A stretch of 64,000 nucleotides of DNA from Alphaproteobacteria bacterium (GTDB lineage: Bacteria; Pseudomonadota; Alphaproteobacteria; Ferrovibrionales; Ferrovibrionaceae): positions 1-64,000 of the forward strand of contig JAFKFH010000015.1 in NCBI GenBank assembly GCA_017307375.1, given 5' to 3'. The notes under the pieces are model-generated. The model was not told where the DNA came from. It worked only from the letters and a program-made list of their open reading frames with translations, and searched no databases. The position numbers and the translations under genes are program-made. This document shows positions 1-23,074 of this stretch, in pieces (the stretch's first letter is position 1; every line of letters begins with the position of its first letter).

Positions 1-2
1 CG

Positions 3-3000
3 GCCGGACGGGCGAGCGACCGTCACGCGCAACGGCTGTGGGGCCGTTCCGCCGACGGCGCCGACCTCTGGATCGCCCTGGGGTCGGACAAGGTGTCGCC
101 GCGGCCGGCGAGCATCGGGACGGCGATCGGCGACGAGCTTGCGGCGGCACGCGAAGCGACCGTCGCCGCCGGCATCGATGCCGATCGAGGCCAGCGCCGC
201 GCCGTAGCGCAGCTCGGCGCCGCGATACCGGCTCAGTTCGCGCTCGGCCGCGACGAGGGCGCAGTTCTGCGCATCGAAGCGATCAACTCGCGCGAGGATG
301 CGGCGGCGTTCCACGAGCGGATGGCCGAGCTTGCCGTGCCGATCGGCGCGGCCGTCGCCGAGCAGCCGGGTGATCGCCAGCTGTTCGATGCCGCGCGGGC
401 GCAGCGCCGGATCGTGGCATCGCTGGCCGAGATGGTCGACCTGCTCGACCGGCCGGCACCCGGACTGCGCCTCGCCGGCCTCGCGGTGGCGCAGCGGCGT
501 GCTGAACTCGCCGCGGCGAGCGATCGCGCGAGCGATCGCCAGATGGTCTCGGCGGCCGACCGGGCCGTCGCGGAGATCCGGCATCGCGGCGCCGAGCTGC
601 GCTACGGCGCGGCGCTGGCCTCGATCGGCATCGATGCCGGCGGCATCAGGCGCTTCGCGCTCGGCGACACCGACGATGCCGCTGGAGAGCCCGGGGCTGG
701 ATCCTTCGATCTCGCCACAATCGAATCGAAGCTGGTCTCGCGGCTCGCGGCCCATTCGTACCGCATCGCCGAGCCATACTCGACCCATCCCCGGCCGGAA
801 CTCGACGCCTGGTCGACGATCGAGGATATCCGCGACCTGACGCGCGGGCCCGGAGCCGACACGCAGCGCTGGCCGAAACCCGAGGATATCGAAAGCGCCG
901 TCCGCAGCGCGGTCTGGGCGATGCGCAACCACCCGGCGCACTTCCCATTCCTCGACGAGCTGGGCATGTCGGCGGTCGAGGCGGTGCCCGACCTCTATCG
1001 CGCCATACACGAGATCGCGTCGACCCCGCGCCCGGCGCGGATGCAGGCCCGCAAGGCGTCGCTAGCGCACGAGCGCTGGTTCCGCGCCGCCTTCCGCGAT
1101 CGCCAGTACCGCCCCGGGGAGCCGCGCTTCTCGCTCCCCTCCGGTGTCGTCGTGCTCGACGGAACCCGCGCCGCCGCCGAGGGATCGCCGCGCGCCGCCA
1201 AGCTCCTGCGTCATGTCGACGATCTCGCCGCGCTGCTCGAGCGGGCGCCGACGATGACCGCCGCCCTCGAGCGGCTGATGGCGTCGGCGCATGCGACACC
1301 CGAGGCCAATTCGCGACTGGCCGCGATCGCGCTGTCGGCGTCGCTGCACCCGGGCGCCCTAGACCAGGCGCGTGACGAACTGGCGGCACATGCGCGACGG
1401 CTCCTGTCGGAATCGCGCGCCTCGCTCACCGATGATCTGAGGCAACGCATCGGCAGCATCAACGAGGCGGCCCTGCACGAGGTGCTGGGCGAGGCGGGCT
1501 GGCGGCCCGGCGAACTCGCGATCACGCCGGAATTCGCGGCGGGCCGGGTGGGCAATGCGGAGCGGCTGCATTTGCTGCAGCTCCTGGGACCCGAGGCCTC
1601 GATCCCCGTGCTCGTTCACGACGCGGTGCCGGACCTCGCGATCTCGGCCGGCCTCGGCGGCAAGGCCTGGGCCGTCTGGAACCGGCATACCGGCGCGTCG
1701 ATCGCCGACTGGCGGCCGGCCGGAGCGCGGGAAGCCGTCATGCGCGGTGCCTCGGATGCCGAGCTGTCGCTGGAGGCTGCCGGGCCTCAGCATCTCGGCG
1801 ACGTCGAACCGGCTGGGATCATCAGGCCGGACACCGCAGCCGATTTCGCCATGTTTCTGCAGTCCCTGCCGCTCGATTGGCGGCGGCTCCAGGGTGCGGG
1901 TACCGCGGACCCCGAGGTCAGGACGCAGTTCCACGACTTCTGGCCGGCGATCGTGCGCCGCCAGGTCGAGCTTGCCGATCGCGACCGGGGCGCTATCGAT
2001 GCCGCCATCGACCGGGAGGCGGGCGAGACCGATGGCCGGCTCGCCGAGATCGTCGCCAATGCGGACGAGCAGCTCGCGGCCGCGTCGACGGTGATCGCGG
2101 CGCTCGAGGCGGGATTCGCCGATGCCCAGGCGCGCGGCGAGGACATGGCGGTCTATCAGGATGCCCGCGAACTGCTGGACGGCGCGGCGCTCGCACACGC
2201 CGAAGCCATGGCCGCACGAGAGTCGTTCGACCGGGAAGGCGGCTTCGTCCGCCTCGACGCCATCGAGCAGGTGCTCGACCGGCTTTCGGCAGCCTGGGAG
2301 CGGCTGGAGCCGCTGCGCGCGGCGATGGAGTCCGACATCGCTCGTCAGGATCGCCTCGAAGGCCTCTCCCCGGAAGCGCGGGCCGAGGCCGATGCCCTGC
2401 GCCGCGCCGAGATCGCCCGCGACGCGGCGCTCCTCCGGGAGCGCCGCGCGCAGTCGCGTCGCATCGAGGAAGTGTTCGCGGAGGTCGATCAGGCCTATGC
2501 CGACCCGATGGGCGAGCTGGAGGCCCGCGCGCGCCATCTCGAGACGGAGGTCGGGTCCTACGATCCCGCGGTCGAGGCCTGGCGGAAGCTGCAGGCGGAA
2601 ATCGAGAGCCTCGAGCAGCAGCGGACCGCCGCGCTCCGAAGCGCTCTGGCAGAGGCGGGGCTTGCGGATTCCGTGACGACCGTCGAACTTGCCGGACATC
2701 AGATGTTCGTCGACGGCAAGCTCGCGCTCGACGCCGACTTCGTCGAACGCGCGGCGCCGCTCGGCTACCAGCTCGACGCCGCCGGCCGCTGGCGCCCGGA
2801 AGCGGTGCAGCGGTCGGTCGAGCTCGTCGCCGATCTGATGGCGAAATTCGAGGAACCGGCCGGGCCCGCGCTCGCGATGAACGGCGCCGCGCTGCTGCCG
2901 CTTCAGGCGGCGCAATACACGCTGGCGGCGACGATGGCCGCCGACCCCGGCGATACCGCGGCCATCGCGGCGGCCCTGGCAAACGTCGACGAGATATATG

Positions 3001-6000
3001 CGAATACACGTCTCGTGGTGCCTCCCGGGGCCGACGAGCCGCCCGCTCCGGCGCCCGAGGCGGTCGGCTGGGACCTGTCGGCGCTGGTGATGGCGCTGCC
3101 GGTCTCGGCGACGCACAAGGAGCGGCTGGCGTCCGAGCTGCGGCCGGCGCTCTCGCTGGTGGCAAACCGTCATGCACTCTGGGCGGCCTACAACGCGGCC
3201 CAGGCGGCGATCCGCAGCGGCGGCGTACCGCCGCTCGCGCGTCTCGCCGGCGAGTTCGGGGTTACCCGGGCCGGCGACCCCCGCGGTCCGGTGGCGGGTG
3301 CCGAGGACCACCTGCTCTACGATATCCGCCGGATGATCCGGGAGGGCAACGAGCTGCTGGCGCGCCATGGCGCCGGATCGGGCACGGATCGCCCGGTGCA
3401 GGTGGTGATGAGTGCCGCGTGGGACGAACAGCTTGGCGGATCCGGCGACCTCGCCGCCGTTCTCGCGCCATCGCTGAGAGACGGCGGCGACCGACGTTTC
3501 GCCCTCGGCCCATCGCCGGGCGCGGGCGGAGTCCCGGTTGCGCCGCCGGCGGTGGGGCAGGGGCCGACCGTCCGGGTGATCGTGACGCTGCCGCCGGCGC
3601 TCGATCGTCGCGACGCGGCCGAGCGTGCGTCGGCAATTGCCGAGCGCATGGCCGAAGCCGTCGGCATCGCCTCGACCGCCATCGAACTCGGCCAGGACGA
3701 GCGGACGGCCAGGCTCGCATTCGGGGCGGCGACGCTCGAACAGGCAATTGCCGCTTCCAGCCGCCTGGCCGGCCACCCCCTGGTAAGCCTCGTCCTGTCG
3801 GGCGATGCCGAGCGGCCCGGGGGCGGCGAGTCCGGCGATCCTGCGGCGGCCTTGCGCGACCGTCTCGCCCGGGACGAGGCGGAGGCGCGGGATGGCCAGG
3901 GCGAGTACGTGGTCTGGGCCTATCGCGCGCCTGATGGCGCGGATCCGGCGGCGATCGCGCGGGCCGCCGGCATGTCCCCCCGGCGCATCCTGGACCAGGA
4001 CGACGGGTTGGTCGCGGAAGCGCTCGAATGGACTGTCGGATCGCTGGCCGAGGGCGCCAGAATTGCGGGGTGCGTCCGCGCTCTCGCCGGGGTCTCCGCC
4101 GGCGTCGAGTACCGCGAGGGCGACAGCCGGCTGAGGAACGACGTCGAGGCCGCGATTGCCGCGGCCGCGCGCGGCGACACCACCGGCCTGCCGATGCTCG
4201 ATGGCCTGGCACGCGCCCGGGCCGAGCGGCTCGGCTTCCCCGATCTGCTGACCAGCCCGGCTCGACCCGATCCGGTTCCGATTGCAGCCCCGGCCTCCGG
4301 TCGCGACAGCGACATGCCGGCCCGCGACAGCGGGGGCGCTTGGCGCGACATCGCCGCCGGCTGGCTGCGCCGTCTCGAGACGGCGGTTGCGACGGCCGGT
4401 CGCGACGTGTTCGTGCGGCTGGCCCGCGGCGGCCGGCAACCGGTCGCGGCCTTCGCGCTCGGCGGGCGGGAATACGTCGACGATGCCGCGGGCCTGGCGG
4501 TCAGCGGCGATCGGCTGCAACTGCAGGGGCCGGGGCGCCACGAGGTCTACCAGGTCGTCGGAATCGACGCCCGCCGCCGTCTCGTGACGCGGCCCGTCGC
4601 GGGCGAGCGGGCCGGCCTGTCGACCTCCTTCCCGGTCGAGACGGCCATCTACGGCTATCGCGGCGCCGGTCCGGACGGGCGCGGTGCCGGTTTCCTCCGC
4701 ATGACGGGCGATGGAGTGAGTCCCATGGAACGACGCGCAGCCTGGGCCGCCGCGAATGCCGTCCAGGCGCGGAAGCGGCGTGACGCCGCAACCCAGGGCG
4801 GGCCGGCGCTCGACGCGCTCGCGGCCGTCGACGCCAATCGTGCCCGTCTGTCCCGCGCCGAGCTGGGCGATCTGAAATCGGCGATCCGCGCGCTCGGCGA
4901 TCTCGAGCTCGGCTACGCCGACCGGCGCGAGCGCATGGCCCAGGCGATCGCGCAGGCCATCGGCCCGCATCTGCTGCGGCGTCTCGACTCCTGCGTCGCC
5001 GGGCCGGCAAGCAGCGAAGAGCTTGCGCGGGCCTTCGGTCTCGGCGTCGAGGTGGTTTCCGCCTATCGGGTGGCGACGATCGCCGGAGCGCAGGCGGCGG
5101 CGCGCAGCCTGTCGCTCATCGATCAGGCGCGTCAGTTCGGGCTGCAGGTCAAGGCCAAGGAGCTGACCGGGGACGGCCGCGCGCACCGGGCCACCCTTGC
5201 CCAGTACCGCCAGGATCTGCTGGCGCTGGCGCGGCGGATCAATCCGACGGTCGCGGTGGAGTTCGTCAACGGCATCTTCCATCCGCCGACCGAGGAGAAT
5301 GTCGCGACCGCGCTGGCATCCGGCGCCACCTCGGTCGCGGACGCCGTCCACCATCTTACCGAGAAGGGGGTTGCCGGCGAGTATCTCGCAGCGCGGAACC
5401 TCGCGCGGCTGTCGATCGACGTGACGAGTTTCGACCCGACCGATACCGCCGCCCACGAGATGTGGCACTCGCTCGAGACCCTCCTGACCGAGGCCGAGCA
5501 GCGGGCGCTTGCAACGAGGTTCCCCGCGACCGGCACGGTGACCCATATCGAGCGCACCGCCTACGCGTTCGGTGCCTGGGCCGCGGCTCGTGTCCGCGGC
5601 GAGCCGATACCGCTCGATGCGGCCGACAAGCACGGAGCCGCACCTGCCGAAGCCGGGCCCTCGACGATCGCGCTCGCGGAGCGCGGCTTCGAGGCGATCG
5701 AAGGCGTCACCGCGGGGGTGCGTGCCTCGCTGCGCGCGGCCGGCGTGACCAGCCTGGCGCAGGTCGATGCGATCTTCGCCTCGGCTCTCGGCGGCGACAT
5801 CGGCAAGCGGGCGGTCGCGCGCGACCGCGCGGCCGCGGCGTGGCCATCGATCAGGGCGACGCTGCCGGCCGAGGTGTCGGCCCATCTCGATGGCGCGTAT
5901 GGCGGCGAGGCTGCGGCGGGAGCCGCCTTTGCGCGCGCGATGGCGATGCGGGTCGCCGGCGAGGCCCCGGCGGATCCGGTGATGCAGGTTCTCGTGGATC

Positions 6001-15000: not shown

Positions 15001-18000
15001 TGCCCAGAAGTGTCCTGGCCGAGGAAAGCGCGGCCCCGGCCTGGATCGTCGGACGGGCCGTGGCGGAAGCCATGACGCGGCTCGACCTCGTGCTCGACCC
15101 TCCGGAATCCTGGAAAACGCTGGATCTGCGGCTGTCCGGAACCGGCAAACCGCCGGTGGCACTTACTGCCGCCGAAATCGCCGCGGCTGCGGCGCCGCCG
15201 GCATCTGCCCGCCGGCTCAAGCTGGCGGACGAACTGGTCGAGGCGGTCGGCGCCGAACCGGCGTCCGCCACCGCCGAGATCGGGTTGCGCCTTGCCGGTA
15301 TCCTGGCTGACCAGGACGAGGCCACGGCCGGCCTCCACCGCGCGATCGCCGCAAGGGACGGGGAGATGGTTTCGGCCTGGCTGTCCGCCGGCGCCGATCC
15401 GAACAAAGCGATCGATCCCGCCGCCGGCGCGGCATTGCACCTCGCAGCTTCCGGCGACCTGGTGTTCGCCCAGGAGATAGCGCCGCTTCTGATCGCGGAA
15501 GGCGCCGATCCGGCCCAGCGCCGCGCCTCCGACGGCGCGATCCCGCTCGACATCGTCCGCGCTCGCGAGGCAGTGTCCGCCCGCGCCGCTCGCGAGTTCT
15601 CGCTGATCAGCGCGGAGGTCGACGGGATCGCGGCGGCCGGGCCGTCCCCGCGTCTGTACTTCTCGGAGTTCAACGCACAGCTCGTCGACGCGGTGCGGTC
15701 CCAGTCCCATCGCGAATTCGAGGACGCGCTGGCGCGCGGCGCCGACCCGAACGCCATCGTCTCCGGTTGGGACACGGTCATGCACCTCGTTGCACGCGAC
15801 CTTCGGACGGCCGCCCAACTCCTTCCGGATCTCGTTCGCGAGGGAGGCAAGCTCGACGCGGTCGGCAGCGACGGGAGGACCGTCCGCCGCGTCCTCGCCG
15901 ATACGGCCGCCGCCGCGGCCGCCGCGGCGCCGGCGGACGCCGTGGCGGCGCTGAAGCGCACCCTCGATGGCGGCCAACCGGATGACGCGGCGATCGCTGG
16001 CGCTCGCCGCGAGCAGGAAGGTCTCGTCGCTCATGTCGCCTCGGCAGGCCCCGACGTCCGGCGGGTCCGGGAGCTTCTTGCCGGCGGCCACGACATCGAC
16101 GAGCGGCGCAGCGAGGACGGAATGACCGCGCTCCACGTTGCCGCCGAGCGCGGGGCGCTCGATGTGGCCGAGGTCCTGGTCGACGCCGGCGCCGACGCAG
16201 GTCTCCGGGACCTGCGCGGGCTGACGCCCGCGCAGGTCATGTCCGCCGCGGCCGCGGATGCGGATCTCGAGGCGCGGCTGCTGCAGGACCGGCTGCAGCA
16301 GGCTGAGCTGCCCGCGGCGGCCCGCCAGACCGTCGACGTTGCCGCGGAAATCAGATCGCCCCTCATGGAGATCGACGGCAGCGAACTCGACTGGGCCGCC
16401 GCGGTCGCCGCTTTCGCCGAAGCCGGATCGGGGCCGCTCGAGTTCCGGACGGCGGCAATCGCGCTGCAGGCGGGTGTGCCGGCAAGCGAGGTGGCGGTGT
16501 CCGACGACCATGTGAGTCTGCATTTCCGGGTACCGCAGGCCGCCGTTGCCCTGACCGCGGAACGCCTCGCGGATCACCCCGACGTGGCGGCGGTCACGAT
16601 CGACGGTGTGGCGTTCGCGCGCGGGGCGGACCCGGTCGAACTGCTGGACCAGGCGATTGCCCGCGGCGATGCGGCGACCGTCCGCTCGATTATCGGAGGC
16701 CTCGCACCAGAGGCGGCGGCCGCGCTGGTGAATACGCCGGTGCCCCATGCGTCCGGCAGGGCAGCGGTCCACAATGCCGCGGGTCATCCCGACATACTGC
16801 GGCTGGTGCTCGAGGCCGGTGGCGATCCGCGATTGCGGGCTTCGCCCCCCGGCGACGGGGAAACGCCGCTTCACTGCGCCGCTTCGGCGCGGTCTCCGGA
16901 GGCGGCGCAGCTGCTGATCGCGGCCGGGGCCGATCCTGCCGCTCCCGACGACAGCGGCTATACCGCGATCGGCAGCGCCCGCGCGAATGCGAGAGCCGTT
17001 GCTTCCTATTATGCCAAGGAGACGGTGCACGAACGGGACCGGGCGAACGGGTACCCGGAACTTGCCGACAGGTCGGATGCGGTGACACGTCTTGCCGGGC
17101 AGCTGGAGATCGCCGAACGTCTCGTCCGCGTCATGGGCGAGCCGCCCGAGCTGGCGCGGGCCGCTACCGGTCTGGGCGCGACCGGCCCGGCCGGAGGCCG
17201 CGACGCGGCTGACGTCGCGCGTCCGCAGGCCGCCGCGCCTGCCGTCGCGGATGGTCCGGTCTCTGCTGGCGGGCCTTCCGGCGCGGCTGAGCCCGTTGCG
17301 CCGGCTCCGCCTGCCGCCGGCGATCGTGGCCCCGAGGCCGGCGCGAAATCGCCGCTGGGCAAGTTGCTCGGCCTCTGGCAGCGGGCCGCCGGGGTCAGGT
17401 TCAAGCTCGAGGCCGATGGGGAAGTCGAGGTGGTGGCCTCCGGGGCGGCCGCCGATCGGCTGCAGGCGGCGCTCTCGGCGAGGCTCGGCCCGCCCCGCGA
17501 TGCCGGTCCGCCGCTCGACGGCGGCGAGGGGACGCGGTTCGCCTGGGCGGGGGTCGACCGGGAGATGCTCCCGGCGCTTGCGCAGGAGATCGCGGAAATG
17601 CCGGCGCAGGCGTCGCCGGTGAGGCCTTCGGCGCCGGTCGTCAATCTCCACGAGCTGCGCAGCGCGCAGGCCCGGAACGAGGCGGCTCAGTCCGAGCGGC
17701 CCGAGCGTACCTATATCCATGTCCCCCCGGGCCGTGAGCTCGATGCCTACGTTCTCGGCGCCGACCGCGACAATGCCGCCGGCATGTTCTACCTGGCGCC
17801 GTCCGCGACCCCGGAACGGCGCCAGGCCGTGCTGGGCGAGTTCGAGCCATACGAGCGCGCGCGATCCCGCTTCACCTATATCGACGTGCCGCAAGGCGCG
17901 GAGGAGCGCCGGCGGGCCACGGCCATGGGCGCGAGCTGGGACGCGATCGCCGGCCAGTACCGGATCGGCGATGGCGTTTCCCAGGAGCGTCAGGCTGCCC

Positions 18001-18776
18001 TGCTGCGGGTCTTCCCGCCGGCCGGCGCGGCGCAGCGGGACGCGGCATCCCAGCAGCGCCGGCAGTTCCGCCTCGAGGAGCAGCGTGCCTTCGGCGCCTC
18101 GTCGCCGGTGGCGGCGCGGCTCGTCGAGCCCCTGACCCCGGAGGCCAGGCCGCCAGCCGGTACCGTGGACACGAGCCTGGTCCGGGACCGCGACCGCCGG
18201 GCCGCGGGCGAGCTCGAGGACGACGCGGCGTCGGCGCAGGCGCGGTCCCGCGGGGGCGAGAAATCGCCTCATGGCATTGCCGAGGCGATGCTCGAGGCGG
18301 TGACCGAGACCGGCGGGCAGCTCGGCGGTACCGCTCGCAGCGCGCTCGACCGCTTCCGCGAGGCGCGGCGGCGGGCCCAGCTGCCCGCTGCCGCTCTTGC
18401 CGAAGGACCCGCCACGCGCACTGCTTCGCCGCTCCGGCAACCGCCGCTCGCGGCCTCGCCCGTGGCAGCCCGGCACCTGCAGGGGAATGTTCAGCCGCTC
18501 CGTGTCCCCGACCAGGCCGACCGCGCGGCAGTGGCCGAGCGGCTGCGCCGCCTCGATCTTCCCGGCCTGATCGAGCTCGGCAGGGCCACCGCGGCCCGGA
18601 TAGGGGAGGTCGAGAAGGCGAAGGGGCCGAGCGCGGCCATCCTTGCCGGCGAGCTGAGCCGAGGCCTGCACATGGTCAACGACCAGATGGTCGCGCGCGG
18701 CCAGGACCGCATCGAGGTCTTCAGGCCGCAAGCGGGCCAGGCGGCCGCGCGCCGGCCGCAGCGGGAGCGCGACTGA
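3..18776 (+). CDS. Giant large polyvalent protein, 5'-partial (zincin, ART-like, ankyrin, DUF5710-like modules)
   Basis: The frame is open from the window's left edge, so the gene almost certainly begins upstream. The first start codon inside is GTG 93 without a good RBS; residue numbers below count from it (6227 aa). Seen: zincin motif HEMWH at 1788-1792 followed by a Glu-containing helix; two ADP-ribosyltransferase-like modules starting near 2156 (GFDVGATYWIHV) and 2396 (GYDTSTAYWHPV); ankyrin-type repeats about 5080-5640 (GADPN, TALHVAAERG, TPLHCAA); two DUF5710-like modules about 5872-5975 (YIHVPPG, YIDVPQG); and recurrent FALG boxes. Composition is Ala/Arg/Gly/Pro-rich with disordered linkers. 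Polyvalent proteins of phages and conjugative elements are known multidomain counter-defence proteins thought to enter the recipient with the DNA; the neighbouring coupling protein fits that. The specific activity of this protein is inference. It ends in an Arg-rich tail, and its stop overlaps the next start (TGATG). Confidence 0.9.
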   Translation, partial: AGRASDRHAQRLWGRSADGADLWIALGSDKVSPRPASIGTAIGDELAAAREATVAAGIDADRGQRRAVAQLGAAIPAQFALGRDEGAVLRIEAINSREDAAAFHERMAELAVPIGAAVAEQPGDRQLFDAARAQRRIVASLAEMVDLLDRPAPGLRLAGLAVAQRRAELAAASDRASDRQMVSAADRAVAEIRHRGAELRYGAALASIGIDAGGIRRFALGDTDDAAGEPGAGSFDLATIESKLVSRLAAHSYRIAEPYSTHPRPELDAWSTIEDIRDLTRGPGADTQRWPKPEDIESAVRSAVWAMRNHPAHFPFLDELGMSAVEAVPDLYRAIHEIASTPRPARMQARKASLAHERWFRAAFRDRQYRPGEPRFSLPSGVVVLDGTRAAAEGSPRAAKLLRHVDDLAALLERAPTMTAALERLMASAHATPEANSRLAAIALSASLHPGALDQARDELAAHARRLLSESRASLTDDLRQRIGSINEAALHEVLGEAGWRPGELAITPEFAAGRVGNAERLHLLQLLGPEASIPVLVHDAVPDLAISAGLGGKAWAVWNRHTGASIADWRPAGAREAVMRGASDAELSLEAAGPQHLGDVEPAGIIRPDTAADFAMFLQSLPLDWRRLQGAGTADPEVRTQFHDFWPAIVRRQVELADRDRGAIDAAIDREAGETDGRLAEIVANADEQLAAASTVIAALEAGFADAQARGEDMAVYQDARELLDGAALAHAEAMAARESFDREGGFVRLDAIEQVLDRLSAAWERLEPLRAAMESDIARQDRLEGLSPEARAEADALRRAEIARDAALLRERRAQSRRIEEVFAEVDQAYADPMGELEARARHLETEVGSYDPAVEAWRKLQAEIESLEQQRTAALRSALAEAGLADSVTTVELAGHQMFVDGKLALDADFVERAAPLGYQLDAAGRWRPEAVQRSVELVADLMAKFEEPAGPALAMNGAALLPLQAAQYTLAATMAADPGDTAAIAAALANVDEIYANTRLVVPPGADEPPAPAPEAVGWDLSALVMALPVSATHKERLASELRPALSLVANRHALWAAYNAAQAAIRSGGVPPLARLAGEFGVTRAGDPRGPVAGAEDHLLYDIRRMIREGNELLARHGAGSGTDRPVQVVMSAAWDEQLGGSGDLAAVLAPSLRDGGDRRFALGPSPGAGGVPVAPPAVGQGPTVRVIVTLPPALDRRDAAERASAIAERMAEAVGIASTAIELGQDERTARLAFGAATLEQAIAASSRLAGHPLVSLVLSGDAERPGGGESGDPAAALRDRLARDEAEARDGQGEYVVWAYRAPDGADPAAIARAAGMSPRRILDQDDGLVAEALEWTVGSLAEGARIAGCVRALAGVSAGVEYREGDSRLRNDVEAAIAAAARGDTTGLPMLDGLARARAERLGFPDLLTSPARPDPVPIAAPASGRDSDMPARDSGGAWRDIAAGWLRRLETAVATAGRDVFVRLARGGRQPVAAFALGGREYVDDAAGLAVSGDRLQLQGPGRHEVYQVVGIDARRRLVTRPVAGERAGLSTSFPVETAIYGYRGAGPDGRGAGFLRMTGDGVSPMERRAAWAAANAVQARKRRDAATQGGPALDALAAVDANRARLSRAELGDLKSAIRALGDLELGYADRRERMAQAIAQAIGPHLLRRLDSCVAGPASSEELARAFGLGVEVVSAYRVATIAGAQAAARSLSLIDQARQFGLQVKAKELTGDGRAHRATLAQYRQDLLALARRINPTVAVEFVNGIFHPPTEENVATALASGATSVADAVHHLTEKGVAGEYLAARNLARLSIDVTSFDPTDTAAHEMWHSLETLLTEAEQRALATRFPATGTVTHIERTAYAFGAWAAARVRGEPIPLDAADKHGAAPAEAGPSTIALAERGFEAIEGVTAGVRASLRAAGVTSLAQVDAIFASALGGDIGKRAVARDRAAAAWPSIRATLPAEVSAHLDGAYGGEAAAGAAFARAMAMRVAGEAPADPVMQVLVDHHERVLAFALDLGREESAAVPAAFEPSATRPPHPLSELMRSALEAEAAPYLAEGWQLSVLPVGAHQMPALVRNDHSAGILVHIDDARSEPRFIARALVDGIPGEPGPTAVGSGVEFMTVAGATAGLEAMEAMLAGGWRQELTGPNRIRPFLEATRAAQAAAVQADQARYLERKLADPALGAAGLAAAGFDVGATYWIHVPDDQVPTLDMVSSIRRMAIVYPDRQSAAGTGFFRQKVAPVYLRVGAVADLTDPAADPDTRAVLKRFFEANRETLRDIHFNQLATREDAKRRRGLASLSDDDCWKVAQDYDYPRFEALIADGAWDLAVGDMHGDGVMALAAEYREAGVSAMRYRMQDGTAKLAVLDGRDVSLAWDRVPAAIEMAKAEREAERKNLEAYNAHYDEQVLAERVREREAEIAAFDLAEVRALGYDTSTAYWHPVASAVFADLDGVSDANSRGRLHLVYANRDQALAQGQALYRNGEQEAVPVYARPGRLAEIGNEIPAAARRVVTAIHEGNSQVLAEAGVADADGLIRLVQQGRWNDLGGAGPVLFYMVLGELRREGFDSVALLGPGAVPTLVVFEEENLTLALDRLEQGPVARLSMRLDGTPAIGMGPRTRNLMLGAAQARQLLIEQRARVAERAGQEERASDLRGNATALQPLTLEEITANVRLLVDEDTIVLLRQGADFVAVDADARRVVAAGSGLRLIEYAAGDIRTERATLVSTGDPVADSLAVTRMAQAVNAAGAKIAFVSIDEHGQADIRHWTGEGYPEVRQIAPHEWADLAATLSARAAERAEAAERRASAWREVAELADHYTDLAIAARGDEIPVLESAGTYCVYGAKADALAARSASAAAALATVELDGGRGVSQIRVDAAGLDGIAREAARSGLAVSIASGLDRTNWTPIGVVARQAGPTLNPVGESAMQQNGSPPPGSQIPPGQRQPDQHQSGHNPTGMSTDSVLRNIPPGTLRVPGAPSQPAPGTTTAARAADPQATAADPGNPAGSRRDDFVRSMLTRRFGTDAARIAQATTERAELAGRHRIAVTLALAEGREVAPEVLADYLPAEVGIDRPTAEQLAAFGFAVAEPLYLGGDRAVRAIADGPAPTLLTPKPEEALSAGPALSAFVLRSRRVADLRPGRLDHDVRMVLTEWYGAGRDKYRLPALPDFFALIERGALVEHQAAAMAGRGEAANDVAARALQRDVLSALKRAGYDTARMIDAGVEVVGVLASGIALPQPGTQEDQLAAGTEPAARPAAQVTAPAVGAAASAAAAYGQQAARGPAAPSPFGAAQPGPASPAQAASALPPLAAAPAGGGARSAFDLPSAAASGDAASAPAITLAGLGPARPPQATELAASGPNQPSGRQPMQQDSTPEARALEQRLGEIVTRLNELDPKTPAADIAALLASDDEPLGLARSEQLASLIYRDVGGEQAGVWPLQNGYVLFRDPQSGAMSAATMEAFAQMISPQGVLGRDPEAARRFPPQLLDAFLDYLDSGRATDPDFAADMNDLREEVQAIISEAAPGTSVELARRLYGEQATVTESGALGPDMQPVSGLYFDSLRLIAVSMDATRGDPAATAYYEAYRILEPLFSNSERQALASAMPLIEQALAGLDREEAQREYDELRAALGRTPSDHPSHARIKGQVEDQAALLAQAVKAEAAAGLPAAVNQAARTREVFGRFAAAARRGEAEAIMARAARLAAAGTPTASTVLPPAGSGRFGTHPRAGTAAPATAPAAGRWQAAAARIREVGASVLGWTGLFRKIDDAHERRDLKTFQQVVADSMRGAIAQRAEVFDTGAELSLREASRIARTANLPRLAQQYDQLSLRLRSRPISAKKLVEDLRQRITDDRIREAVLACGFHRVADSADLGLLADTREKARKVLALATSPTPQRAAGRGRAGERPQEAAARVGSRPLGGEPPVAAASPAAAQPGARPAGPGRRASELTIGFWTQAEFVAGAQQRRIPVGVVEKLGVGNVVQRHPDGTPVVDKVVYGPRDTPLASVSLADPALAAGLPATLTDVQKRDAILQRAVQELHKRVLVAELQAGRRISEANLQTYPDLAPLVPAWLYNDRADVVAPRSRGAEVGIGQAVARVGERQLGHSPLQFALGRDEAGEPVIATRSMREALAAARRLLPATAGQPELQVTSAGLLARSAGGAAAAIPAADGGWHVHRPTADGQARLIGTFAHPVDAAGAALALAAGGARDAEIAAAASGVSPAPAPTPIQRPRIGAWGYYTAPRPEALGGGLSVYYSADGKRFDPIGPAADAARAHEVADAHSRSVGPEAAARRWENRFYGAGSAALGIPLGLLAARMVDNATGGPAIARALELVDQHLGQALAAVPGADPAQVYARAIDTLAGSMGAAGQAVGIEMREAGEIAAGYLARLRDTGVDPSAAVGHTAGHMGIDVMLADGLHRGTEAIAAGMKALPDAIGDAAAALASGLQAPAWLSTESLSVARDLAVQAVARAQADLAQFGAPTAREVYDVAEQQLSELVLSGDLWRNQGFGDADRVLVQSWDLALGHLRYLKESGIDPDRAAAYLRSGDAGNAIQAIADASGTVVETGQRVWDAALAKIESAAHAGSTLVGDVHVSAESALGRLAASGQEATAQWLGVFQQQGADLVRQGGEQLAVWQHELGIAGEAARSCIANAVPAALERPLGQRLFDYVTDAGAVDRVSTAVGRAVDACKAGAEKGGALARLGQHAESLMQAASELAMRTGVHLQAFRQAVEHATGVDAAFLAEHAKDMARAAGHAMGVQFALGQGDASHTETHHAGRELPPMRFDLGRVAPAPGPAASLEEIARETLVFASSAGKGLSAETIAAAVPEVAARHGLALAVGAGVAGVAGEAQPKRAAAAKSVREAAATLARDAALAEALAEVGAMQKPALSRAVPARRTVSYHEIVERRPRAIRLILEAGGAPVWFPADAIKIDTAASTVSGKAALIDRKLAEAARRDAGNRLVSLPEAAWSGERSVGYDVLFESEAAEPVQVRIFLPRSVLAEESAAPAWIVGRAVAEAMTRLDLVLDPPESWKTLDLRLSGTGKPPVALTAAEIAAAAAPPASARRLKLADELVEAVGAEPASATAEIGLRLAGILADQDEATAGLHRAIAARDGEMVSAWLSAGADPNKAIDPAAGAALHLAASGDLVFAQEIAPLLIAEGADPAQRRASDGAIPLDIVRAREAVSARAAREFSLISAEVDGIAAAGPSPRLYFSEFNAQLVDAVRSQSHREFEDALARGADPNAIVSGWDTVMHLVARDLRTAAQLLPDLVREGGKLDAVGSDGRTVRRVLADTAAAAAAAAPADAVAALKRTLDGGQPDDAAIAGARREQEGLVAHVASAGPDVRRVRELLAGGHDIDERRSEDGMTALHVAAERGALDVAEVLVDAGADAGLRDLRGLTPAQVMSAAAADADLEARLLQDRLQQAELPAAARQTVDVAAEIRSPLMEIDGSELDWAAAVAAFAEAGSGPLEFRTAAIALQAGVPASEVAVSDDHVSLHFRVPQAAVALTAERLADHPDVAAVTIDGVAFARGADPVELLDQAIARGDAATVRSIIGGLAPEAAAALVNTPVPHASGRAAVHNAAGHPDILRLVLEAGGDPRLRASPPGDGETPLHCAASARSPEAAQLLIAAGADPAAPDDSGYTAIGSARANARAVASYYAKETVHERDRANGYPELADRSDAVTRLAGQLEIAERLVRVMGEPPELARAATGLGATGPAGGRDAADVARPQAAAPAVADGPVSAGGPSGAAEPVAPAPPAAGDRGPEAGAKSPLGKLLGLWQRAAGVRFKLEADGEVEVVASGAAADRLQAALSARLGPPRDAGPPLDGGEGTRFAWAGVDREMLPALAQEIAEMPAQASPVRPSAPVVNLHELRSAQARNEAAQSERPERTYIHVPPGRELDAYVLGADRDNAAGMFYLAPSATPERRQAVLGEFEPYERARSRFTYIDVPQGAEERRRATAMGASWDAIAGQYRIGDGVSQERQAALLRVFPPAGAAQRDAASQQRRQFRLEEQRAFGASSPVAARLVEPLTPEARPPAGTVDTSLVRDRDRRAAGELEDDAASAQARSRGGEKSPHGIAEAMLEAVTETGGQLGGTARSALDRFREARRRAQLPAAALAEGPATRTASPLRQPPLAASPVAARHLQGNVQPLRVPDQADRAAVAERLRRLDLPGLIELGRATAARIGEVEKAKGPSAAILAGELSRGLHMVNDQMVARGQDRIEVFRPQAGQAAARRPQRERD
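8760..8774 (+). promoter_or_regulatory. Internal RBS and ATG within the giant gene
   Basis: A GGGGAGAG element lies four bases before an in-frame ATG at 8772. Translation from it would begin MQQNG at residue 2894 of the giant protein, just after the second ART-like region and at the head of a Pro/Gln-rich linker. It could permit nested translation, or be the relic of a gene fused into the giant frame. Seen directly; use is unproven. Confidence 0.4.
10086..10100 (+). promoter_or_regulatory. Internal RBS and ATG within the giant gene
   Basis: GGGAGG at 10086-10091 is followed six bases later by in-frame ATG 10098, beginning MQQDS at residue 3336. Spacing and strength equal those of the better start sites in the window, and the first residues mirror those at the 8772 site. 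A Pro/Ala-rich linker precedes it. Probably an internal start or a fossil gene junction. Confidence 0.45.
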
Positions 18777-19675
18777 TGCAGGTCGGAGATCTCGTCACCG
18801 CCCTGACCGGCGATCGGCCGCCCCGCCTCGATGCGCAATCGGCCCGCCTGGCGCTGGCCGATCTGGCGGCGACCCACCCGGAGCTGCTGGCGATGGGATT
18901 GTCCCGTGCGCGGGCTCGTGCGGTCGCCGCGGGCCGCAGCGCCGGGCCGATCGACCGAGCCGTCTCACGGCACTGCCCGGAGGATGATCGTGCGGCGGCC
19001 GGCCGGACCCCGGCGCGGGGAGGCAGTCGGCTTGCGCGGTGGATGCGGCTGCGCGTGCGCGGGGCGTCCGCCGCGGCCGACGCAGCCAGCCGGGAGATGA
19101 AAGCCGCGGCCTGGTCGCACGAGGCCCGGCTGGCGGCCGACATGGCAGACCTGGTCGCCGGCAAGCGTCCGCCGGCGCGGCCTGAAACCGGCCTAGCCCT
19201 CGACGCGGCGATCGGCAATCTCGACCGGGCGATGGCGCGCGACCGGGAGGCACCGGCCCCGGATCATGACCGCCCAGACTTTGGCCGAGCCAGGTCTGGC
19301 CGCGCCGCCGACGGCGCCGCGCCGGGGCTCTCGCGTGACGCGCCGCTTCAGCCGCCGCCGGTCATTGACATCGCCATCAGGATCCCGGATCCCGGTCTCG
19401 TCGGTGCCGAGCACGCACGCCGGGTCGCCCAGGATCTCGAGACCGTCCTTCGTGGCCTTGATCCGGCCGAGCTCCTGGCGCGCCGGGACGCGGCCCGCCT
19501 CGAGGCGTCGCGCCGGCGCGGGCCGGCCGGCTCGATCCTGGCGGACGAACTGAGCCGCGGCGTCGAGCTCGTGGAGCGGGTCGCCGCCGACCGCGGCATC
19601 GGCCTGCCGGACGATGCGGCAAAGGCCGGGGCCGATCCGGCCGGCAGGCGCCGGCGGGATCAGCAGGAACGATGA
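18776..19675 (+). CDS. Hypothetical protein sharing the giant protein's C-terminal module
   Basis: 299 aa; function unknown. Its ATG overlaps the giant gene's stop by one base (TGATG), so the two are translationally coupled. The C-terminal part contains GPAGSILADELSRGVELV, matching GPSAAILAGELSRGLHMV at the end of the giant protein, each preceded by a Leu/Arg-rich helix; this is a duplicated module. The protein ends in a basic tail (GRRRRDQQER), like the giant protein (ARRPQRERD). No membrane segment or signal peptide is seen. Position between the polyvalent protein and the coupling protein suggests a transfer role, either as a second T4SS substrate or as an adaptor. That role is inference. 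Confidence 0.8.
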   Translation: MQVGDLVTALTGDRPPRLDAQSARLALADLAATHPELLAMGLSRARARAVAAGRSAGPIDRAVSRHCPEDDRAAAGRTPARGGSRLARWMRLRVRGASAAADAASREMKAAAWSHEARLAADMADLVAGKRPPARPETGLALDAAIGNLDRAMARDREAPAPDHDRPDFGRARSGRAADGAAPGLSRDAPLQPPPVIDIAIRIPDPGLVGAEHARRVAQDLETVLRGLDPAELLARRDAARLEASRRRGPAGSILADELSRGVELVERVAADRGIGLPDDAAKAGADPAGRRRRDQQER

Positions 19676-19685
19676 GGATGAACCC

Positions 19686-22328
19686 ATGAGCCGCTTCTTC
19701 CGGTCGATTGCCGGCACTCTCGCGAAGCTGCGGCGCGGCACGGCCGATGCCGCGTTCCTTGCCCTCGACGGCCTGCTTGGCAGCATGGTGGCCGAATACG
19801 ATCCCGAGCCCGAGCGGCGCAAGGCGCAGCTGTGGAAATGGTTGACCATCGGATGCACCGTGGCCGCGGCGCTGTTCGGCATCCTGATGCTCTGGCCGGT
19901 CCGGATGCTCGTCGACTATGTCGTGCTCGGCGACTGGACGATATCGGCCTGGTGGGTGCAGACCGCGGGCTATTTCGGCGGCTTCTTCCAGCATCTCGGA
20001 CTGCGGGAATGGTGGTCCGGCACGGTGCCGCTGACGGCGAGCGGCTGGCCGGCCCGCTGGGCGCCGTTCCTCTATGCGCTTTTCGTCAAGTACGACGGGG
20101 CGCGCTACGTGATTTCGCCCTATTTCGTCGTCCTGCTGCCGCCGATGCTGCTGGCGGCGCTGATCGGCCGCTCCTGCCCCTACGAGCTGCGGCCGAAATC
20201 GCAGGGCGATGCCAAATGGGCGACGGAGGAGGATCTGCGCCAGTCGGAGCTGTTCGCGCCGACCGGCATGATCCTGGGACGCGTGCCGGTCGTCGGCCAG
20301 GTCGACTCGACCCGGCGGTCGCGCGGCCACCGCCAGGATCAGTTCCTGCGCAACTGGGAGACGCTGTCGGGCATCCTGATCAGCCCGCCGGGTACCGGCA
20401 AGACGGTCCAGCTGGTGACGCAGATCCTCGCCGACTGGCCCGACCACCTGCCCAGGCGTCTCTTCGGGATCCTGCCCGCCGGACGCAAGCCGGCGCCGGT
20501 ACCCGGCCCGTCGATGCTGATCAATGATCCGAAGGGCGAGATCTACAACACGACGTCGGCCTACCGTGCGACGCTCGGCCCGGTCGTCAAGCTCGCCTGG
20601 GCCGAGACCGACCCGGGACTGGACTGCTGGAATCCGCTCGATCCCAGCAACTATCCCTACGGCCTCGAGGGCGTCGAGCTGCGGCGGTCGATCCTCGCAC
20701 TCCTCGATCCGCTCTACGGCCCCTATCGCGGCGCGGCGCTCGGCCAGCTCCTGCTGCTGACCCAGCTGCGCCACGACTGGGCCGACATGCTCGCCGCGGG
20801 CCCGCAGATCCTGCTGTCCGACGAGCACGGCGCCGAGCTGTGGCAGGGGCTGCCGCATGGCGGCCGTCCGGCCCCGGACCTGGTCGCGGCATCGGTCGCG
20901 GGCCTGCGGCCGCATATCGACCGCCTCTACAAGGTCTATGCGGAACGTGAGAAATATCTCGAGAGCCTCGCCGCCATCCTGATCCCCGAAACCGTCGAAC
21001 AGCACTGGCGCATCACCGGCCGCGAGGCGCTCGCCGGCATGATGGGGCTCGAGATCGCCCGCGCCGAAAACGACCCGGTCAATTACGGCGAGCCGAGCAT
21101 ACCGAAGGTCCTCGACTGGCTGAATGCCTGCACGGGCGGGCGCGGCTTCAGCGATCCGCGCGAGGAGCCGGTGGTGCCGGGCGCCGAAGGCGAGGCTCAC
21201 GGCGCCGGCAAGTATCTCGGCCAGGGCAATGTCGGCTCGGCCAATGATCCGACCGGCGGCGACGCCGACACCGACATGACCGCCCAGCTGCTCGAAGCAG
21301 CGATCGAGGAGGCTACCCGCAACGGCTACCCGCCCCGCGTCATCAACGACCTGAATGCCCTCCGGATGAAGCCGGACAGGGAACGAGGATCGGTGATCTC
21401 GACGGCGGGCGGCGCGATCAACATCTTCAAGAACGCCGCGGTCCGGGCGCGGACGAGCCGTTCGACTTTCAGAATCACCGATTTCAGGGGGGTTCCCAAC
21501 GGCCGGACATCCGGCATGAAGGTCGATCCGATCACGGTCTATCTCGTGGTGCCGCTGAAGGATGCCAATTCGCTCGGCCGCGTTACGTCGCTGCTGCTCG
21601 AGGCCGCCGCCGGCATCCTGCTCTCCGAAGACGACGAGGACGTCAAACGGCGCAAGGCGGCAGGCACGATGCGCCCGGTGCTGCTGCTGATCGACGAGTT
21701 CTGGACGCTGCAGCGGTCGGATTCGCTCCGGCAGCTGCCGGCTCTGGGCCGCGGCCTCTGGGCCATGCTCCTGCTGGTCGGGCAAACCGACGGCCAGATC
21801 GCCAGCAAATACGGGTCGGATGGTCCGAACGCGGTGAAGGAGCTGAAGGCGTCGTGCCACTACAAGCTTTATCCCGCCCAGAACGACATGGAGTCGGCGA
21901 AAGGCGTGAGCGAACTGATCGGCAACCAGACGGTCATCACCCGCAATCGCAGCGAGCAGAAAGGCTTCGGGAAAGGCGTGAATCCCTTCTCGCACAACCT
22001 CAACACCTCGTTCGCCGGCATCCCGCTGATCCGGGCCGAACAGCTTACCCGTCTGCAGAAGCTCGACCCGCGAAAGAACCAGTGGGGATGGCAGCTCGTG
22101 CGCTTCGGCGAGCACAACATCATCTGCCGGCCGGCGGCCTGGTTCGACATGCCGCAGCTCGCCGGGCGCGCAGGCAAGCTCGCGGCGCCGCGGCCGATCG
22201 TCCGCCTGGAGACCGCGGTTCCGCGGGCGGTGCGAGCCGTCCCCGCCGCGCCGCCGCGGCCGAGCTTCGCCGACGTCGCGGCCCGCGCCAATGCGCGGAT
22301 CGCCCCGATCGCCGCCGATCGTCGATGA
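19686..22328 (+). CDS. virD4: Type IV secretion coupling protein (VirD4/TraG family ATPase)
   Basis: 880 aa from ATG 19686, preceded by a purine-rich stretch; an in-frame ATG at 19614 would lie inside the preceding gene and is less likely. Two N-terminal membrane segments (about 53-80 and 143-161) precede a cytoplasmic ATPase domain with Walker A PPGTGKT near residue 234 and Walker B LLLIDEFWTL near 663, followed by a GRGLWAMLLLVGQT strand. This is the arrangement of VirD4/TraG coupling proteins, which recruit the relaxosome and protein substrates to the T4SS. It is longer than typical members, with an insert between the Walker motifs. It is the third gene of an operon headed by the giant polyvalent protein, so that protein is a natural candidate substrate. 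Its stop overlaps the next gene by ATGA. Confidence 0.95.
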   Translation: MSRFFRSIAGTLAKLRRGTADAAFLALDGLLGSMVAEYDPEPERRKAQLWKWLTIGCTVAAALFGILMLWPVRMLVDYVVLGDWTISAWWVQTAGYFGGFFQHLGLREWWSGTVPLTASGWPARWAPFLYALFVKYDGARYVISPYFVVLLPPMLLAALIGRSCPYELRPKSQGDAKWATEEDLRQSELFAPTGMILGRVPVVGQVDSTRRSRGHRQDQFLRNWETLSGILISPPGTGKTVQLVTQILADWPDHLPRRLFGILPAGRKPAPVPGPSMLINDPKGEIYNTTSAYRATLGPVVKLAWAETDPGLDCWNPLDPSNYPYGLEGVELRRSILALLDPLYGPYRGAALGQLLLLTQLRHDWADMLAAGPQILLSDEHGAELWQGLPHGGRPAPDLVAASVAGLRPHIDRLYKVYAEREKYLESLAAILIPETVEQHWRITGREALAGMMGLEIARAENDPVNYGEPSIPKVLDWLNACTGGRGFSDPREEPVVPGAEGEAHGAGKYLGQGNVGSANDPTGGDADTDMTAQLLEAAIEEATRNGYPPRVINDLNALRMKPDRERGSVISTAGGAINIFKNAAVRARTSRSTFRITDFRGVPNGRTSGMKVDPITVYLVVPLKDANSLGRVTSLLLEAAAGILLSEDDEDVKRRKAAGTMRPVLLLIDEFWTLQRSDSLRQLPALGRGLWAMLLLVGQTDGQIASKYGSDGPNAVKELKASCHYKLYPAQNDMESAKGVSELIGNQTVITRNRSEQKGFGKGVNPFSHNLNTSFAGIPLIRAEQLTRLQKLDPRKNQWGWQLVRFGEHNIICRPAAWFDMPQLAGRAGKLAAPRPIVRLETAVPRAVRAVPAAPPRPSFADVAARANARIAPIAADRR

Positions 22329-23074
22329 CGATGACAATGACGGAGGCGCGCATTTCGTCACCGTCGAAATCGATTTCCCGGCTGCGCCATGAAGCGCTGG
22401 CTCCGTTGGTGAAGATCCTGCATGAGGAGCTCGCTGTCGCCGTCCTCGACGTGCTGGTCGGCGACCCGGAGATCGCGGACCGGGCATCGTTGGTTGCGGC
22501 CAGTTCGGACATCGACGCGCTGGGGCCGGTCCTCTTCAGGGAAACATCGCATCGGGTCGCGTGGTCGCATGTCGCCGGCGGTCACCGGCTACAGCTGGCC
22601 AGATCGCTCGCCGGACTTCGGCAAACCGCTGCCACGTTGCAATCGCTCTACCGCGATCGCTGGCTCGAGGTCAGGCAGGTCGCGTCGGTGATCGTCGGCA
22701 GTGTCGCCACCGAGGTCGAGACCGATCTCCTGTCGGTGTTGCTCGAGGCGGCGTTGCGCCTCGGCGATGCCGATCCGGGCGACTGGTCCGCCCACGCCGA
22801 ACTGCATCTTCTCGACCTCGCCGAGCGGGCTCGACGTGCGGACAGCCTGCTGCGCCTCGGCCGTGACCTTGGCGCCGGCGATGTGGAATCGTCGCTGGCG
22901 GCGGAACAGATCGACGACGAACTTCGGCGGATTGTCGTCGATCTCCGCCGTATCTCCGCCCCGGTGGCACTATGGGAGACTCTCCAGGAGCTCCTGCTGA
23001 TGGATCCTGGTCGCCGCTGGTCGTTGATCCTGCAGCTGGCGCGACACTATGCCCGATTTCGCGGCAAGCCCTGA
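22325..23074 (+). CDS. Hypothetical protein coupled to the coupling protein
   Basis: 249 aa, not recognised. ATG 22325 overlaps the VirD4 stop (ATGA). The product looks all-alpha: long Leu/Ala/Arg-rich helices, few Cys, no signal peptide and no membrane segment. It begins with a Met-Thr repeat (MTMTMTEA). Being last of the giant protein / 299-aa / VirD4 operon it may serve the coupling complex, but nothing in the sequence fixes a function. An in-frame extension upstream overlaps virD4 deeply and is not a credible start. Confidence 0.75.
   Translation: MTMTMTEARISSPSKSISRLRHEALAPLVKILHEELAVAVLDVLVGDPEIADRASLVAASSDIDALGPVLFRETSHRVAWSHVAGGHRLQLARSLAGLRQTAATLQSLYRDRWLEVRQVASVIVGSVATEVETDLLSVLLEAALRLGDADPGDWSAHAELHLLDLAERARRADSLLRLGRDLGAGDVESSLAAEQIDDELRRIVVDLRRISAPVALWETLQELLLMDPGRRWSLILQLARHYARFRGKP

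What the first reader, a model, noticed from the sequence alone, without database searches (positions are those of the whole stretch)
3..23074. Giant polyvalent protein heads the coupling-protein operon
Seen: one frame of more than 6250 codons, open at the left edge, is coupled by TGATG to a 299-aa gene; VirD4 follows ten bases later and is itself coupled by ATGA to a 249-aa gene. Known: large polyvalent proteins of conjugative elements and phages combine peptidase, ART and other domains and are thought to travel with DNA. Inference: co-expression with the coupling protein makes the giant protein a dedicated T4SS cargo for protecting incoming DNA. Its size is exceptional and its domain set may be new.
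Basis: partly seen in the sequence, partly recalled or inferred. Interest (0 to 1): 0.85.

Follow-up and report, generated by a model that had tools for sequence, protein, structure and literature searches.

The report
Giant conjugation polyprotein with export tail
A large bacterial plasmid devotes a seventh of its DNA to one gigantic multi-domain protein, made together with the pump that sends DNA into other cells; it looks built to be shipped through that pump and perhaps cut into separate tools on arrival, but nobody has tested this.

Summary
The window starts at a contig end whose 149 bases exactly repeat the other end, so the contig is a circular plasmid of ~237.4 kb. The frame continues across the join: ~11,452 codons, 1.2 MDa, 14.5% of the plasmid. 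A Rhizorhabdus MAG has the same frame on three contigs, 84% identical, no stops, dN/dS 0.24, then the same TGATG-coupled gene and virD4.

It is a conjugative polyvalent protein: methylase/SNF2 dyad, three HExxH segments, an ART-fold segment, ankyrins. Most of its length matches nothing.

Two features were not found described in my searches. (1) [RQ][FY][AS][LI]G recurs between domains: 9 copies (0.16 expected), 8 and 3 in two other giants, 1 in 182 other plasmid genes; 0 in five other polyvalent-type ORFs. (2) The last ~95 residues recur at the C-terminus of the coupled 299-aa protein and of a 478-aa plasmid protein; the relaxase lacks them. I read (2) as a type IV export signal and (1) as a processing site; both roles are inferred.

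Verdict: new variant of a known kind.

The parts
3..18776 (+). C-terminal 6,257 codons of the giant gene; window bases 1-149 repeat the contig's far end, and the N-terminal 5,284 codons lie at C31:221736-237587 (likely start ATG at C31:221856)
5196..5606 (+). zincin-like segment 3 (HEMWH, then E..AYAFGAWA); segments 1 (HEAYH) and 2 (HESWH) lie outside the window
   Evidence: no Pfam match, AlphaFold model poor
6555..7229 (+). ART-fold segment (copy 1)
   Evidence: AlphaFold pLDDT 75.8; fold comparisons
7245..7847 (+). homologous segment, probable second ART-fold copy
   Evidence: alignments A3, A5
9225..9707 (+). possible third, diverged copy of the ART-like segment (by eye)
   Evidence: sequence; not tested further
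10500..10847 (+). degenerate zincin-like segment 4 (YYEAY in place of HExxH)
15336..16952 (+). ankyrin repeats
   Evidence: Pfam Ank_2 4.7e-23
17709..17981 (+). two DUF5710-like stretches (one scored E 0.025, under its cut-off; the other by eye)
18489..18773 (+). C-terminal module with basic tail (RRPQRERD), candidate T4SS export signal
234..248 (+). linker motif QFALG
651..665 (+). linker motif RFALG
1125..1139 (+). linker motif variant RFSLP
3495..3509 (+). linker motif RFALG
4449..4463 (+). linker motif variant AFALG
6018..6032 (+). linker motif variant AFALD
12324..12338 (+). linker motif QFALG
14289..14303 (+). linker motif QFALG
18776..19675 (+). 299-aa protein, start overlaps the giant's stop; its last 88 residues (19409-19672) carry the same C-terminal module
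19686..22328 (+). VirD4-type coupling protein
   Evidence: Pfam PF02534, PF12696
22325..23074 (+). 249-aa protein, no family found
26522..27670 (-). separate ArdC protein with MPTase-PolyVal domain
   Evidence: PF08401, PF18818
29774..30958 (-). VirB11-type ATPase
   Evidence: PF00437
30958..32550 (-). VirB10/TrbI
   Evidence: PF03743
32550..33716 (-). VirB9/CagX
   Evidence: PF03524
35688..38183 (-). 832-aa ATPase of VirB4 size and position
   Evidence: only weak DUF87 / TrwB_AAD_bind matches
39487..42156 (-). MobA/MobL relaxase; lacks the C-terminal module
   Evidence: PF03389

Best explanation
The gene encodes one 11.4k-residue conjugative polyvalent protein that works as an exported tool chain. 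Shown: a single reading frame under selection; dyad, ART fold and ankyrins; start-stop overlap with a 299-aa gene just before virD4; a C-terminal module shared by three proteins of the plasmid; a recurrent pentapeptide outside the mapped domains. Inferred: the C-terminal module plus basic tail is read by the neighbouring VirD4 as an export signal, so giant and small partner are threaded, unfolded, into the recipient along with or before the DNA. There the protein's own zincin-like domains cut at the [RQ]F[AS]LG-type linkers and free the units. The methylase-helicase unit protects the incoming DNA against restriction; ART-fold and other units act on host proteins.
For: Polyvalent membership: residues 2192-3613 align at 42.6% to the A. 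argentinense giant and match 1,960 of 72,556 plasmid records, 1,093 of them over at least 80%; this is the methylase-helicase dyad that the founding paper names among the commonest modules (passages). Synteny: giant upstream of virD4 in two Azospirillum and one Rhizorhabdus element, adjacent and convergent in T. lucentensis. Export module: Smith-Waterman z 33 (giant/478 aa) and 8.1 (giant/299 aa), none of 500 shuffles reaching them; the A. argentinense giant and its 1,928-aa neighbour share a C-terminal module of their own (z 10.6). Three copies found in the genome, all on this plasmid (13 of 237 candidates scored there). Analogue: BID domain plus positively charged tail, the bipartite type IV signal of alphaproteobacteria (passages). 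Processing: motif 9 vs 0.16, 8 vs 0.09, 3 vs 0.07 expected; F kept at 13 of 13 sites although flanks are less conserved than average (0.74 vs 0.838); none of 13 F[AS]LG sites inside a mapped domain (P 0.02, borders partly by eye); codons vary between sites; the part of the dyad shared with free-standing 1,643-1,696-aa proteins on three other plasmids (giant 2207-3701) lies between motif sites 2187 and 4011. Synonymous divergence rises about threefold after residue ~10,300 and stays high through the 299-aa gene and virD4, as if tail and coupling protein had travelled together.
Against: No export or cleavage data. The plasmid's relaxase and ArdC, expected cargo, lack the module; so does the 160-aa protein between the A. 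argentinense giant's neighbour and virD4; the Thalassospira giant and its 799-aa neighbour share none. Modules of different elements are not alignable (hhalign probability 2.5% or less). Zincin identity rests on HExxH...E: Pfam MPTase-PolyVal finds in this genome only ArdC and one protein on contig C5, hhalign to an ArdC pair fails, the model is poor. The motif is absent from 5 of 9 polyvalent-type ORFs counted, including L101, which has a HELYH, and from three free-standing dyads. F is kept at 93% everywhere in the giant, so 13 of 13 is not by itself unusual. The free-standing dyads have 54-81 residues ahead of the aligned part, more than the ~20 between motif 2187 and the alignment start, so motif and natural N-terminus do not coincide. 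ART-like copies share no obvious catalytic triad. I know of no T4SS substrate near 1.2 MDa (recalled).
Confidence: 0.4

Rival explanations
1. Polyvalent protein that stays in the donor or resident cell. It is made with VirD4 only because transfer genes are co-regulated, and protects or services the plasmid (methylation, conflict with other elements). The C-terminal module holds giant, 299-aa and 478-aa proteins together in one complex.
For: Export is unproven; the relaxase lacks the module; the 299-aa start overlaps the giant's stop, as for complex partners; the 478-aa gene lies two genes from a nuclease gene, far from the T4SS genes.
Against: The module is strictly C-terminal and ends in a basic tail in all copies aligned; a second element has its own shared C-terminal module beside its virD4.
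Confidence: 0.3
2. The recurrent [RQ][FY][AS][LI]G is a docking motif, not a cleavage site: for example a repeated binding site for a host or plasmid protein such as the sliding clamp (that resemblance is recalled, no call), or a strand that caps each domain.
For: F, a small residue and L are the best-kept positions, as in short docking motifs; polyvalent ORF L101 has a HELYH but no motif.
Against: Sites lie outside mapped domains; so many docking sites in one chain would be unusual (inference).
Confidence: 0.35
3. Motif and linkers are relics of how the gene grew: recombination between polyvalent genes at shared linkers, with no present function.
For: Tandem helical segments at residues ~1190-2190 tend to follow a motif; a recombination-like step in dS near residue 10,300.
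Against: Codons at the sites differ, and the core is kept while flanks decay, which points to selection on the peptide.
Confidence: 0.15
4. Assembly or gene-calling artefact: several genes fused by error.
For: The window starts at a contig end.
Against: Same unbroken frame in a separate MAG, dN/dS at or below 0.55 in every 250-codon window; 8,997-aa and 9,130-codon counterparts in two Azospirillum records.
Confidence: 0.01

Closest known systems
Polyvalent proteins of conjugative elements (Iyer et al. 2017, PMC5512222)
   Same: Methylase-SNF2 dyad, ART fold, zincin-like segments, T4SS context; processing by zincins is already proposed there as a general theme
   Different: The paper reports 2-15 domains per protein; here ~11.4k residues, mostly unmatched, with a recurrent linker motif and a shared C-terminal module, neither of which I met in the sections and passages I read
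Giant of Azospirillum argentinense plasmid p5 (WP_137118925.1, 8,997 aa, annotated AAA family ATPase)
   Same: Dyad, zincin-like segments, ART-like region, linker motif, upstream of virD4
   Different: Has an AAA+ ATPase domain; a different C-terminal module, shared with a second 1,928-aa protein; aligned pieces are 27-44% identical
BID domain plus basic tail (alphaproteobacterial T4SS signal, PMC6509941)
   Same: A C-terminal module of about 100 residues ending in positive charge, shared by several proteins of one plasmid
   Different: No BID match of the giant's C-terminal slice or of the 299-aa protein in the Pfam scan at E<=1; the relaxase lacks the module
Phage P1 DdrB / N4 virion RNA polymerase (as described in PMC5512222)
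   Same: Large proteins carrying an MPTase domain; DdrB is known to be cut
   Different: Phage-packaged; no repeated linker motif mentioned in that section

Membership tests
Polyvalent proteins | Unrelated activities joined in one chain | tested here: met
   Dyad, ART fold, ankyrins
Polyvalent proteins | SNF2 ATPase - adenine methylase module | tested here: met
   42.6% to the A. argentinense dyad; 1,960 of 72,556 plasmid records match; Pfam matches themselves are below cut-off
Polyvalent proteins | Zincin-like MPTase | tested here: inconclusive
   Three HExxH with downstream E, unchanged in the Rhizorhabdus homolog (3 vs 0.18 by shuffling, at most 2 in 400), but no Pfam, hhalign or fold support
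Polyvalent proteins | Encoded with T4SS/relaxase genes | tested here: met
   VirD4, VirB9, VirB10, VirB11, MobA/L relaxase
Polyvalent proteins | Carried into the recipient | not testable with these tools
   Needs a translocation assay
Polyvalent proteins of conjugative elements | ArdC-N domain (common, 93% in the paper; not defining) | tested here: not met
   No ArdC-N match in the giant's slices; ArdC is a separate gene at 26522-27670
ART-PolyVal (PF18760) | Profile match | tested here: not met
   No match in the own genome at E<=0.001
ART superfamily | ART fold | tested here: met
   VIA-align rows named as ADP-ribosylating or NAD-using by their titles: ParT (Z 6.1, 6.0), diphtheria-toxin homolog (5.8), Tpt1/KptA (4.4-5.1), PARP14 (4.1); rows 1-4 and others (cyanophage pre-ejectosome 7.9, anti-CRISPR 7.5, NatT, MbcT, RES) are ART-type by recall. 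All Z under 8, so moderate support; Foldseek itself had no PDB match at E<=0.001
ART superfamily | Catalytic residues | tested here: inconclusive
   No shared triad recognised across copies
BID-type T4SS signal | Profile match to BID | tested here: not met
   Pfam scan of the C-terminal slice and the 299-aa protein, E<=1
VirD4 coupling proteins | T4SS-DNA_transf and TraG-D_C domains | tested here: met

The most novel reading that the evidence does not exclude
A bacterial polyprotein for conjugation: one ~1.2-MDa chain with a single C-terminal VirD4 address tag is exported, and its own zincins cut it at up to 18 or so [RQA]F[AS]LG-type linkers into a kit of separate enzymes in the recipient, in the way RNA viruses make polyproteins. 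The tag-plus-linker grammar would let many enzymes share one export signal.
Probability: 0.25. Interest if true: 0.88.

Novelty: new variant of a known kind. Interest (0 to 1): 0.62.

Why it matters
Why polyvalent proteins are fused into one chain is open; the founding paper proposes that zincins free the parts but names no cleavage site in the sections and passages I read. A conserved linker peptide gives a concrete, mutable site, and a C-terminal module shared with a 299-aa protein gives a small, easily assayed test of export. If both hold, conjugative plasmids deliver a set of early enzymes through one signal, which bears on how plasmids survive entry into new hosts.

Tried and rejected
Rejected: contig-edge artefact (homolog). 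A viral origin got no support: zincin alignment A2 found no relative in viral contigs (20 stretches matched the pattern, none confirmed); A3 could not be searched.

Led nowhere: PDB sequence searches of A2 (best E 0.9, a nanobody) and A3 (none); NCBIfam, PHROGs and PADLOC gave, above noise, only matches over the ankyrin region; zincin AlphaFold model pLDDT 57, not used for fold searches; profile comparison of C-terminal modules between elements; a hit-list search of plasmids with the 478-aa protein (none) and with the giant's last 2,257 residues (none); paper searches: only named a form of the motif (RFSL, with 'polyvalent') and it found no paper.

Against the motif being general: zero in 5 of 9 polyvalent-type ORFs counted (thal2, L101, L102, Vibrio phage D171, Planktothrix phage), zero in three free-standing dyads, and no form ending in G in the listed sites of a Subdoligranulum ORF. 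I chose F[AS]LG after reading the giant, so the counts in other giants and in the 182 other called genes are the fairer tests; the giants share homologous domains and are not wholly independent.

Synteny: a giant frame next to VirD4 in 5 of 16 VirD4 loci looked at (own, Rhizorhabdus L030, A. argentinense L007, A. brasilense L032, T. lucentensis L008; not seen in L026, L027, L028, L029, L031, L033, L034, L035, L036, L037, L057; several of these are short contigs or show only 10 kb on each side). One search returned 51 loci, of which I read 9; one search matched 1,375 plasmid records, of which I opened the best 6. Only the own genome among 18 of the order has this VirD4 at E<=1e-60. In one search (class, E<=1e-40) 18 of 385 genomes matched, own included; I did not read the 17 others, whose VirD4 matches are 34-41% identical over parts.

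Limits of the module search: one search scored 13 of 237 candidates in the own genome (at most 13 in the others), 150 of 235 in the Rhizorhabdus genome; further copies could have been missed there. On the plasmid itself every open frame of 50 or more codons was scored without filters.
Full report
What is there. The left edge is not the end of the gene. The window is contig C31:1-64000 of a 7.54-Mb, 41-contig assembly; C31 has 237,587 bases and its last 149 equal its first 149 exactly. The frame that leaves the far end is the one that enters the window, giving 11,492 codons between stops. An ATG at codon 41 is conserved in the homolog while the earlier ATG at codon 21 is not, so the likely product is 11,452 aa, about 1.2 MDa, 14.5% of a circle of 237,438 bases. 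The start is uncertain by up to 28 residues (GTG at codon 13, ATG at 21).

Independent confirmation. A VirD4 search found a Rhizorhabdus MAG (86% in the best VirD4 segment). Its genome holds the giant on three contigs: giant positions 1-4625, 4563-5880 and 5912-11492, at 84.6, 87.5 and 82.4% identity, no stop inside. Over 11,248 aligned codons dN/dS is 0.24 with dS 0.42; the highest 250-codon window is 0.55. The giant's stop again overlaps the start of a 289-aa homolog of the 299-aa protein (both at L030:9118), followed by virD4.

Domains. In the window part Pfam finds ankyrin repeats and otherwise only sub-threshold matches; in the N-terminal part, sub-threshold methylase and helicase matches. 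BLAST against the A. argentinense p5 giant (8,997 aa; records) shows residues 2192-3613 to be the methylase-SNF2 dyad at 42.6%. That segment matches 1,960 of 72,556 plasmid records; in three of the four regions that I opened it is a free-standing annotated protein of 1,643-1,696 aa, the fourth having no annotation. HExxH occurs at 438, 4828 and 7053 against 0.18 expected; the latter two belong to one homologous segment with a downstream E that both other giants share, and a fourth copy is degenerate. All three HExxH are unchanged in the Rhizorhabdus homolog. The ART-like segment 7420-7644 gave a usable model (pLDDT 75.8). Foldseek in the PDB had nothing at E<=0.001; its best was a cyanophage pre-ejectosome chain at 0.0093. 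VIA-align ranked that chain first (Z 7.9), then an anti-CRISPR protein (7.5), then a run of toxins including the ADP-ribosylating ParT, with Tpt1 and PARP14 lower; that the first two, NatT, MbcT and the RES toxins are of ART type is recalled. In the viral library one of four hits at E<=0.001 is labelled ART-PolyVal-like, and eight more of the 50 listed carry a PolyVal-ART label. Z under 8 alone would be weak; the agreement of the rows makes the fold likely. Activity is open.

Linker motif. F[AS]LG occurs 13 times (0.46 expected, at most 3 in 300 shuffles). As [RQ][FY][AS][LI]G the counts are 9, 8, 3 and 1 in the giant, the A. argentinense giant, the Thalassospira giant and the A. argentinense 1,928-aa protein (0.16, 0.09, 0.07, 0.03 expected), 1 in 182 other called genes of the plasmid (0.72 expected), and 0 in five other polyvalent-type ORFs. 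One of these five, L102, has RFSL at three sites within 560 residues. In the Rhizorhabdus homolog F is kept at 13 of 13 sites, L at 12, G at 10; neighbouring residues are 74% identical against 83.8% overall; but all F residues of the giant are kept at 93%, so F alone is not special. Codons differ between sites. No F[AS]LG lies in a mapped domain, these covering 24.8% of the length (P 0.02; borders partly set by eye); of the looser F[AS]L, 2 of 21 do. Motif 2187 stands about 20 residues before the region shared with free-standing dyads (2207-3701) and the next is at 4011, but those proteins have 54-81 more residues at their start, so the match of unit and bracket is only approximate. In A. argentinense the bracket is looser still: 331 and 4017 around a dyad at 583-1973.

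C-terminal module. One search showed a 74% DNA match between the giant's end and C31:80136-80418 (-), the end of a 478-aa gene. The 299-aa protein ends in the same module: a profile from the giant, its Rhizorhabdus homolog and the 478-aa protein scores it at 24.5 bits, the best of 2,000 shuffles at 6.8. In alignment A6 the invariant columns include R20, L22, D23, G46, E55, R58, G59, R70, G71 and, in the tail, R88, R89, E93, R94. In 385 genomes of the class the search found three stop-free copies, all on this plasmid, and two marginal hits elsewhere that contain stops; at most 13 candidates per genome were scored. The Rhizorhabdus genome has two (giant and 289-aa protein); A. brasilense and two Thalassospira genomes gave none. 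A. argentinense shows the same pattern with a module that does not align to this one: giant and 1,928-aa neighbour, z 10.6. This parallels the BID domain, which with a positive tail is the type IV signal of alphaproteobacterial relaxases, toxins and effectors (passages of PMC6509941). The relaxase and ArdC here do not carry it.

History. In 250-codon windows dS is 0.25-0.70 up to about residue 10,250 and 1.1-1.5 after it; the 299-aa gene has 1.4 and virD4 0.93. A recombination breakpoint inside the gene would separate body from tail. It fits a model in which tail and coupling protein must match, though one breakpoint is weak evidence.

Reading. I judge polyvalent membership near certain, export through VirD4 somewhat more likely than not (about 0.55), and cutting at the motif about 0.35; the joint confidence was lowered from 0.42 to 0.40 on checking, because few module candidates were scored and the dyad bracket is only approximate. 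Protein translocation by a conjugative T4SS is established for smaller proteins (start of the abstract of PMC8406263), and substrates must unfold (abstract of PMC5826034), so length alone does not forbid it. Proteins above 5,000 aa are known by the tens of thousands, and 67 bacterial plasmids were reported with one (passages of PMC11573180), so size is notable, not unique. Papers: PMC5512222 abstract, sections 6, 8, 9, 29, 32, 33 and found passages; PMC6509941, PMC6362355, PMC9791958, PMC11573180 found passages; PMC5826034 abstract and outline; PMC8406263 start of abstract in a listing. None of these passages describes the motif or the module; that is a statement about them and the searches listed, not about all print.

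Noticed in passing
window ~15150-22328 (giant residue ~10,300 onward) versus L030/L090: Synonymous divergence from the Rhizorhabdus homolog jumps about threefold inside the giant and stays high through the 299-aa gene and virD4, as if body and tail had different histories.
   Followed up: partly
L015:5300-8300 (giant residues ~1190-2190), one more near giant residue 6267: Tandem, diverged segments with a recurrent LPVSxxR-like block, several preceded by the linker motif; no family match.
   Followed up: no
L009:39196-45001 and L007:1-31977 (NZ_CP032326.1 244195-276976): A. argentinense p5 devotes 33 kb to an 8,997-aa giant with an AAA+ ATPase domain and a 1,928-aa second protein with HESVH, both just before virD4; the record calls the giant 'AAA family ATPase'.
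   Followed up: partly
C31:80136-82488 (L016:16136-18488, -): The 478-aa protein with the giant's C-terminal module lies two genes from a staphylococcal-nuclease homolog; it may be another cargo protein.
   Followed up: partly
L102 (G105:C12:258000-277999): Another polyvalent ORF (3,606 codons) with RFSL at three spaced sites, hinting that the linker motif has a wider, looser form.
   Followed up: partly
window 24944-25873: EamA-type transporter gene inside the transfer region.
   Followed up: no
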